Position numbers and translations under genes: made by a program. A stretch of 30,976 bases of DNA from a virus. The notes below the pieces were generated by a model, which did not search any database, was not told the DNA's origin, and saw only the letters and a program-made list of their open reading frames with translations. Shown piece after piece: positions 30,099-30,597 of the stretch (position 1 is the first letter of the stretch; each line of letters begins with the position of its first letter). The stretch lies in IMG/VR virus record IMGVR_UViG_3300046167_000587, positions 1-30,976 of that record; one strand, given 5' to 3'.

Positions 30099-30174
30099 AG
30101 ACCCATAGTTTAAATTGGTTAAAACGACATCCAAGTCAAGATGTAGATTTCAGGTTCGAATCCTGTTGGGTCAC
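30099..30174 (+). tRNA. aberrant tRNA-like gene, GTC in an enlarged anticodon loop
   Basis: A nearly complete cloverleaf: acceptor AGACCCA with TGGGTCA (6 of 7 pairs), T8-A9, D arm GTTT/AAAC with a GG-containing loop, anticodon stem ACATC/GATGT, and T arm CAGG-TTCGAAT-CCTG. The anticodon loop is abnormal: it has eight bases (CAAGTCAA) and lacks the universal U33. If read as GTC it would be an Asp-type tRNA. The terminal acceptor pair and the outer T-stem pair are mismatched and no CCA is encoded. It could be a degenerate tRNA, a frameshifting tRNA, or a decoy. The body is convincing; translation activity is doubtful. Confidence 0.6.
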
Positions 30175-30340: not shown

Positions 30341-30421
30341 ATGGCAGAAACTTATATCTACGCAGTCGCAATTATATTGCCGATTGGATATATATTAGCG
30401 ATGTACTTTACAACAAAGTAG
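30341..30421 (+). CDS. possible 26-aa transmembrane peptide
   Basis: A 26-codon frame starting with ATG shortly after the 30288-30327 hairpin. Its product (MAETYIYAVAIILPIGYILA, then a short tail MYFTTK) is one transmembrane helix. The stop codon lies inside the acceptor stem of the second tRNA-like gene, so processing of that RNA would cut the stop off the messenger. Evidence is limited to the clean hydrophobic product and its position. A chance frame remains possible. Confidence 0.4.
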   Translation: MAETYIYAVAIILPIGYILAMYFTTK

Positions 30422-30576
30422 GGTGTTGGAACTGGCAGACAAGCCCTCCTGTCTCGAGGGTGCAGCATAAGGGAACTCTAGGATAGTGGATTATCCATTA
30501 ACATATCACCCTTTGAGGTATATGATTATGTCCTGTTGTGAACCTCTGCGTGAAGGTTCGAGTCCTTCCCCTACTG
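30417..30576 (+). tRNA. tRNA-like gene with 91-nt insertion between anticodon and T arms
   Basis: All canonical arms are present: acceptor AGTAGGG/CCCTACT (7 perfect pairs), T8-G9, D arm TTG/CAA with a class-II-like loop GAACTGGCAGA, anticodon arm CCCTC-CTGTCTC-GAGGG (five pairs, seven-base loop, U33 present, anticodon GTC), and T arm GAAGG-TTCGAGT-CCTTC (five pairs). The discriminator is G. Between anticodon and T arms lie 91 bases (30461-30551), closed at the base by GCAG/CTGC and containing a hairpin CATAT-ACC/GGT-ATATG. Base 37 is T rather than a purine. It resembles a class II tRNA body with a greatly enlarged variable arm. Whether it is charged or matures is unknown. Confidence 0.6.
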
Positions 30577-30597
30577 CTAAATAATAAATAATTAGGT

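What the first reader, a model, noticed from the sequence alone, without database searches (positions are those of the whole stretch)
30417..30576. tRNA-like gene with every canonical arm plus a 91-base insertion in the variable region
Acceptor, anticodon and T stems are perfect and the D loop is class-II-like, yet the element is about 160 bases long because 91 structured bases sit between anticodon and T arms. This is far larger than any normal variable arm and lies outside the usual intron position. The Leu/Ser-like body carries a GTC (Asp) anticodon and an unusual T37. It may be a new form of phage tRNA, an RNA decoy against tRNA-cutting defences, or a non-translational tRNA-like structure.
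Basis: seen in the sequence. Interest (0 to 1): 0.75.

Follow-up and report, generated by a model that had tools for sequence, protein, structure and literature searches.

The report
Bacteroidota tRNA-like RNA with inserted domain
The odd phage tRNA is one member of a widespread, apparently uncatalogued family of tRNA-like RNAs found in Bacteroidota bacteria and their viruses, which look built to be charged with aspartate but probably not to decode messages.

Summary
It is not a one-off. I found 103 distinct relatives in virus contigs and 112 in Bacteroidota chromosomes; a covariance model from 25 of them scores the window element 105.9 bits (E about 1e-26). All helices but one covary, including the stem inside the insert. 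No Rfam family matches, and nothing convincing was found in isolate phages or plasmids. The RNA combines a Leu-like class II body, the strong AspRS identity set (G73, G34-U35-C36, C38, plus G2-C71), U37 in place of the usual purine, and usually U1-A72, the pair read by GatCAB. Canonical tRNA-Asp genes usually coexist with it. Phage copies often sit in tRNA arrays with 3-9 nt spacers and usually carry a palindromic loop; cell copies stand alone, mostly opposite an Lrp/AsnC gene. Best reading: an aspartylatable, non-decoding tRNA-like RNA, perhaps a GatCAB substrate. Structure and family are shown; charging and function are inferred. The window copy is divergent: A1-U72, no conserved core motif, no palindrome.

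The parts
30417..30577 (+). whole tRNA-like gene, A1 to C74
   Evidence: model R1 105.9 bits, E 1.1e-26
30417..30423 (+). acceptor 5' strand AGTAGGG (A1; most relatives have U1)
   Evidence: 7/7 pairs; 6 of 7 pairs with changes on both sides in the family alignment
30426..30442 (+). D arm: TTG / GAACTGGCAGA / CAA
   Evidence: helix 2 (2 of 3 pairs with changes on both sides)
30444..30460 (+). anticodon arm CCCTC CTGTCTC GAGGG; anticodon GTC 30451-30453, U37 at 30454, C38 at 30455
30461..30551 (+). 91-nt variable region holding the inserted RNA domain
30462..30465 (+). variable-arm stem 5' strand GCAG
   Evidence: pairs with 30546-30549; helix 4, 100% of cells paired
30479..30485 (+). P2 5' strand TAGGATA
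   Evidence: pairs with 30529-30535; P2 covaries at 6 of 6 pairs in the family
30486..30498 (+). hairpin A, GTGGA TTA TCCAT (window lineage; replaces the conserved GGGUUGACCAC hairpin)
   Evidence: fold
30502..30524 (+). hairpin B, CATATCACCCTTTGAGGTATATG (window lineage)
   Evidence: fold
30529..30535 (+). P2 3' strand TGTCCTG
30546..30549 (+). variable-arm stem 3' strand CTGC
30552..30568 (+). T arm GAAGG TTCGAGT CCTTC
30569..30577 (+). acceptor 3' strand CCCTACT, discriminator G73, C74
   Evidence: all 103 phage members read GC at 73-74 without a filter on these bases; 215/215 G73 and 214/215 C74 overall, but the chromosomal set was filtered on G73

Best explanation
It is the phage copy of a Bacteroidota tRNA-like RNA that is transcribed and trimmed like a tRNA, is charged with aspartate by the host AspRS, and is kept out of ordinary decoding by its U37 (and occasional non-U33) anticodon loop and its bulky variable-arm domain. 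The charged RNA then serves a non-ribosomal purpose. The most specific mechanism that fits the conserved positions is that GatCAB, which reads the U1-A72 pair, converts Asp-RNA to Asn-RNA, giving a dedicated RNA for asparagine production or sensing; the chromosomal genes usually face an Lrp/AsnC-type regulator. Shown here: family, structure, covariation, distribution, gene context, coexistence with tRNA-Asp. Inferred: processing, aspartylation, exclusion from decoding, the GatCAB step (about 0.35 on its own) and the use of the product. The window lineage itself has A1-U72, so its copy may have lost the GatCAB step.
For: Covariation across the family. AspRS strong determinants G73, G34, U35, C36, C38 and the minor pair G2-C71 (PMC9976931) are kept: G2 215/215, C71 215/215, C38 211/215, G73 103/103 in unfiltered phage members. 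The searches fixed most loop bases and the chromosomal filter fixed G73, but nothing fixed G2 or C71. Hits of model R1, whose search does not fix the loop, still show GTC-U-C with few exceptions. U1-A72, read by bacterial GatCAB (PMC4206432): 111/112 chromosomal and 91/103 phage members. U37 where 294 of 300 canonical tRNAs on these loci have a purine. Of 15 phage records with 12-30 tRNA genes, 14 show one copy in the stretches read (in G413 the stretch did not include it), and 11 also hold a canonical tRNA-Asp; all 7 bacterial genomes tested have a canonical tRNA-Asp match. Many phage copies lie 3-9 nt from flanking tRNAs. Chromosomal copies: TAnnTTTG motif clustered 25-54 nt upstream, T-run downstream in 93/112, divergent Lrp/AsnC gene in 66 of 89. 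GatB in 42/42 carriers; among genomes with GlnRS, 36/36 carriers against 19/35 non-carriers have GatB, Fisher p 1.3e-6, no correction for kinship.
Against: No expression or charging data. Bacterial tRNA-Asp has strictly conserved G1-C72, called crucial for identity (PMC9976931), and G10; the family has neither. A few members have A34 or T34, or C33 or G33. 27 of 30 carrier genomes have an asparagine-synthetase-family hit (that family includes paralogues with other roles) and all 30 have AsnRS, so no extra route to Asn is forced on them. The window lineage has A1-U72. The GatB association may only reflect kinship. Short phage forms lack the inserted core, so the core is not needed everywhere.
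Confidence: 0.55

Rival explanations
1. Decoy or sink for an enzyme that binds or cuts the tRNA-Asp anticodon loop (an anticodon nuclease, a toxin, or AspRS itself). Phages would carry it against host defence; hosts against toxins.
For: The loop CUGUCUC differs from the usual canonical tRNA-Asp loop CUGUCAC only at position 37; one copy per phage array; tandem copies in some chromosomes; tRNA-like ends and T arm kept.
Against: Does not by itself explain U1-A72, the covarying insert core, the Lrp/AsnC neighbour or the GatB association. No link to a defence or toxin gene was looked for, so this is weak evidence.
Confidence: 0.17
2. A supernumerary tRNA-Asp used in translation, with an ornamented variable arm that the ribosome tolerates.
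For: AspRS identity set, intact L-shape signals, position inside tRNA arrays.
Against: U37 throughout, C33 or G33 in some members, a variable region of up to about 130 nt with its own conserved core, and a canonical tRNA-Asp already present in all 7 bacterial genomes tested and 11 of 15 phage records.
Confidence: 0.13
3. A dimerising structural or regulatory RNA in which the tRNA shape only supplies processing and stability; charging is irrelevant.
For: Phage members carry palindromes of 6 nt or more in the apical part of the insert in 85% of 55 distinct segments against 30% of shuffles, with many different palindromes; some are 6-nt loops such as AAGCGCGCAA that cannot close on themselves. 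Palindrome switching was taken as support for symmetric kissing loops in OLE and GOLLD (PMC12286853). GOLLD lies in the same records as two of the copies.
Against: Chromosomal members show no excess of palindromes (23% against 25%) and the window copy has none of 6 nt or more; does not explain the kept Asp identity positions.
Confidence: 0.1
4. A tRNA interrupted in the variable region by a small intron that is removed.
For: Forms with a 21-26 nt variable region exist, some in relatives of the same phage.
Against: The stem at the base of the insert and P2 belong to the variable arm and covary; no Rfam intron model matches at the element; size and content vary without an evident splice junction.
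Confidence: 0.04

Closest known systems
tRNA-Leu (class II)
   Same: closest canonical relative by covariance score, Leu-type D arm (GAAATTGGCAGAC), long variable arm
   Different: G73 instead of A73, GTC anticodon, U37, structured insert; tRNA-Leu genes score about 50-60 bits with model R1, members about 80-150
tRNA-Asp (GUC)
   Same: anticodon, C38, G73, G2-C71
   Different: class II body, U1-A72 instead of G1-C72, no fixed G10, U37 instead of A37, insert; coexists with a canonical tRNA-Asp
allo-tRNA and tRNA-Sec-like RNAs (PMC7609411)
   Same: long variable arm with anticodons that do not match the body; GUC is among the allo-tRNA anticodons
   Different: allo-tRNAs have a 12-bp acceptor domain (8/4 or 9/3) and are described from Clostridia, Proteobacteria and Acidobacteria; this family is 7/5, has an inserted domain and is found in Bacteroidota
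GOLLD RNA (RF02032)
   Same: phage-encoded, near tRNA arrays, palindromic kissing loops, unknown function (PMC12286853)
   Different: a different, much larger RNA; found as a separate gene in the same records as two members
tRNA-Asn with U1-A72 and tRNA-dependent asparagine synthesis by GatCAB (PMC4206432)
   Same: G73, U1-A72 in most members
   Different: GUC not GUU anticodon, U37, and hosts that also have AsnRS

Membership tests
elongator tRNA (RF00005) | scores above the family cut-off | tested here: not met
   no match at the element up to E 10; ARAGORN misses it, though it finds 93-95 nt short forms
elongator tRNA (RF00005) | acceptor, D, anticodon and T helices | tested here: met
elongator tRNA (RF00005) | purine at 37 and U33 | tested here: not met
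   U37 in the window and the family; U33 is present in the window, C33 or G33 in some relatives
elongator tRNA (RF00005) | decodes on the ribosome | not testable with these tools
   needs experiment
tRNA-Asp | AspRS strong determinants G73, G34, U35, C36, C38 | tested here: met
   window and nearly all members
tRNA-Asp | G1-C72 and G10 | tested here: not met
   A1-U72 in the window, U1-A72 in most members; position 10 is T in the window and A, T or G in the family
tRNA-Leu | class II body with A73 | tested here: not met
   class II body yes, but G73
allo-tRNA / tRNA-Sec | 12-13 bp acceptor plus T domain | tested here: met
   the summed length is 12 bp (7 + 5), but this is also the ordinary tRNA value, so it does not discriminate; see next row
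allo-tRNA / tRNA-Sec | acceptor of 8 or 9 bp (8/4, 9/3 or 8/5 form) | tested here: not met
   7/5 form
GatCAB substrate | U1-A72 | tested here: not met
   not met in the window (A1-U72); met in 111/112 chromosomal and 91/103 phage relatives
tmRNA or group I intron | match to the Rfam model | tested here: not met
   no match at the element
the new family (model R1) | covariance-model match well above tRNA-Leu | tested here: met
   105.9 bits; canonical tRNA genes in seven genomes score 60 bits or less
the new family (model R1) | core motif GGAUAAAC - P2 - GCUAAC and the GGGUUGACCAC hairpin | tested here: not met
   window has P2 and the variable stem but GGGAACTC and GTGAAC at the core and other hairpins

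The most novel reading that the evidence does not exclude
A dedicated tRNA-like RNA for tRNA-dependent asparagine synthesis or sensing: charged by AspRS through its anticodon and G73, amidated by GatCAB through U1-A72, and barred from decoding by U37 so that Asn is not put at Asp codons; taken over by phages, where it also dimerises through a palindromic kissing loop.
Probability: 0.22. Interest if true: 0.95.

Novelty: new variant of a known kind. Interest (0 to 1): 0.8.

Why it matters
A tRNA-shaped RNA family in about a tenth of sampled Bacteroidota genomes (42 of 392) and in many of their phages appears to be absent from Rfam, and its long members escape a standard tRNA finder. If it is charged but does not decode, it would be a chromosomally encoded non-translational aminoacyl-RNA, and it would offer a testable answer to why some bacteria with both AsnRS and GlnRS keep GatCAB.

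Tried and rejected
Rfam search with permissive thresholds on the window and on phage and chromosomal members: no family at the element in the window and nothing but chance-level hits elsewhere. BLAST against isolate phages and plasmids: no match except short T-arm/acceptor pieces (20-27 nt) with E 0.07-0.9. Single-sequence folding energy: uninformative. Papers: searches on unusual tRNAs, decoys, variable arms and Bacteroidota small RNAs showed no description of this family in the titles and abstracts returned; one review of non-canonical tRNAs was searched by term only. A conserved C74 looked special but canonical phage tRNAs on these loci usually have it too. Substitution for a missing tRNA-Asp: rejected, 11 of 15 phage records have both. 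Intron in the variable region: considered, no support. Absence of asparagine synthetase as an explanation: AsnA is rare in carriers (3/30) but AsnB-like hits are common (27/30), so not decisive. AsnRS gene 6-7 kb from the RNA in two genomes (G001, G014): not general.

Full report
Observation. The element reads exactly as described: A1 at 30417, G73 at 30576, C74 at 30577, acceptor 7/7, D stem 3 bp, anticodon and T stems 5/5, loop CTGTCTC, and 91 nt from 30461 to 30551 between the anticodon and T arms. ARAGORN and Rfam miss it. Its folding energy is not special.

Relatives. Terminase relatives of this phage hold the same gene upstream in short (93-95 nt) and long (146-161 nt) forms. Extraction with a structural filter gave 103 distinct phage and 112 distinct chromosomal members. 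These counts are lower bounds, and the patterns fixed most of the anticodon loop. A model of 25 members finds the window at 105.9 bits and 42 of 392 Bacteroidota genomes at E 1e-14 or better. The next hits in the same genomes are shorter and weaker; of the eleven checked, eight are tRNA-Leu, two tRNA-Pro and one unassigned.

Structure. All seven helices hold (98.2% of cells paired; 21 of 33 pairs changed on both sides). Six helices have changes on both sides; the small hairpin in the insert does not vary and so is neither supported nor refuted. Inside the variable arm lie a 4-bp stem, an internal loop (GGAUAAAC / GCUAAC), P2 (6 of 6 pairs with double changes) and that hairpin, GGGUUGACCAC. Phage members usually add a palindrome of 6-12 nt (85% of 55 segments against 30% of shuffles; chromosomal 23% against 25%). 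Several are too short to form hairpins, and by the argument used for OLE and GOLLD (PMC12286853) they suggest homodimers. The window copy keeps the stem and P2 but has lost the core motif and the palindrome and has two other hairpins.

Identity. AspRS in bacteria reads G73, G34, U35, C36, C38, with G10 and G2-C71 also contributing (PMC9976931). The family keeps all but G10. G2 and C71, which no filter fixed, are invariant in 215 members; G73 is invariant in the 103 phage members without a filter, while the chromosomal set was filtered on it. Model-based hits keep the loop with few exceptions: A34, T34, C33 or G33 in a handful (some rows there print the loop shifted and were re-read by eye). 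U37 is constant, whereas 294 of 300 canonical tRNAs on these loci have a purine. U1-A72, the GatCAB signal (PMC4206432), is present in 111/112 chromosomal and 91/103 phage members; the 12 phage exceptions, all A1-U72, include the window, and in most of them a 26-residue membrane-peptide reading frame ends inside the acceptor strand.

Context. Phage copies often lie 3-9 nt from tRNAs on the same strand, which suggests processing as a tRNA. Of 15 records with 12-30 tRNA genes, 14 show one copy in the stretches read and 11 have a canonical tRNA-Asp. Chromosomal copies have a TAnnTTTG motif clustered 25-54 nt upstream, a T-run downstream in 93 of 112, and in 66 of 89 testable loci a divergent Lrp/AsnC gene. 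TAnnTTTG as the Bacteroidota promoter element is from my own knowledge. The seven bacterial genomes tested all have a canonical tRNA-Asp match.

Test of the GatCAB idea. Carriers have GatB in 42 of 42. Among genomes with GlnRS, where GatCAB is not needed for Gln-tRNA, 36 of 36 carriers and 19 of 35 non-carriers have GatB (Fisher p 1.3e-6). This passes a test the idea could have failed, but it is not corrected for kinship. The GatB and GlnRS comparison was chosen after the first 50 genomes had been looked at; in the 80 further genomes alone it is 10 of 10 carriers against 16 of 27 non-carriers, the same direction. AsnRS was found in 30 of 30 carriers, AsnA in 3 and AsnB-like genes in 27, so asparagine production is not forced to use this RNA.

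Verdict. The family and its structure are shown. That it is aspartylated and non-decoding is inferred from conserved positions and context. The GatCAB step and asparagine role are a specific, testable proposal. For the window phage, which has A1-U72 and a divergent insert, the charging and non-decoding part still applies; the GatCAB part may not.

Noticed in passing
window 30341-30421 (+): 26-residue membrane-like peptide frame MAETYIYAVAIILPIGYILAMYFTTK whose TAG stop is T3-A4-G5 of the tRNA-like gene; similar frames end there in about ten related loci.
   Followed up: partly
window 30099-30174 (+): Second odd tRNA with an 8-nt anticodon loop CAAGTCAA (ARAGORN: anticodon agtc); relatives have the same 8-nt loop (L002, L003, L013, L014) or a 9-nt loop (L006, L009, L011).
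   Followed up: partly
L099, L101, L107, L180, L194, L100, L170 and others: Some phage members also have a hairpin inserted in the D loop; a few are palindromic, others repeat the motif TGTCTC.
   Followed up: no
L118 1-301, L123 2233-2646 and 1028-1383: GOLLD RNA in two records and a tmRNA in one of them, in the same tRNA arrays as the tRNA-like gene.
   Followed up: no
L100 9133-9363: Group I intron match overlapping a weak tRNA match.
   Followed up: no
G001 C17 and G014 C2: AsnRS gene 6-7 kb from the tRNA-like gene in two genomes; not seen in the others compared.
   Followed up: partly
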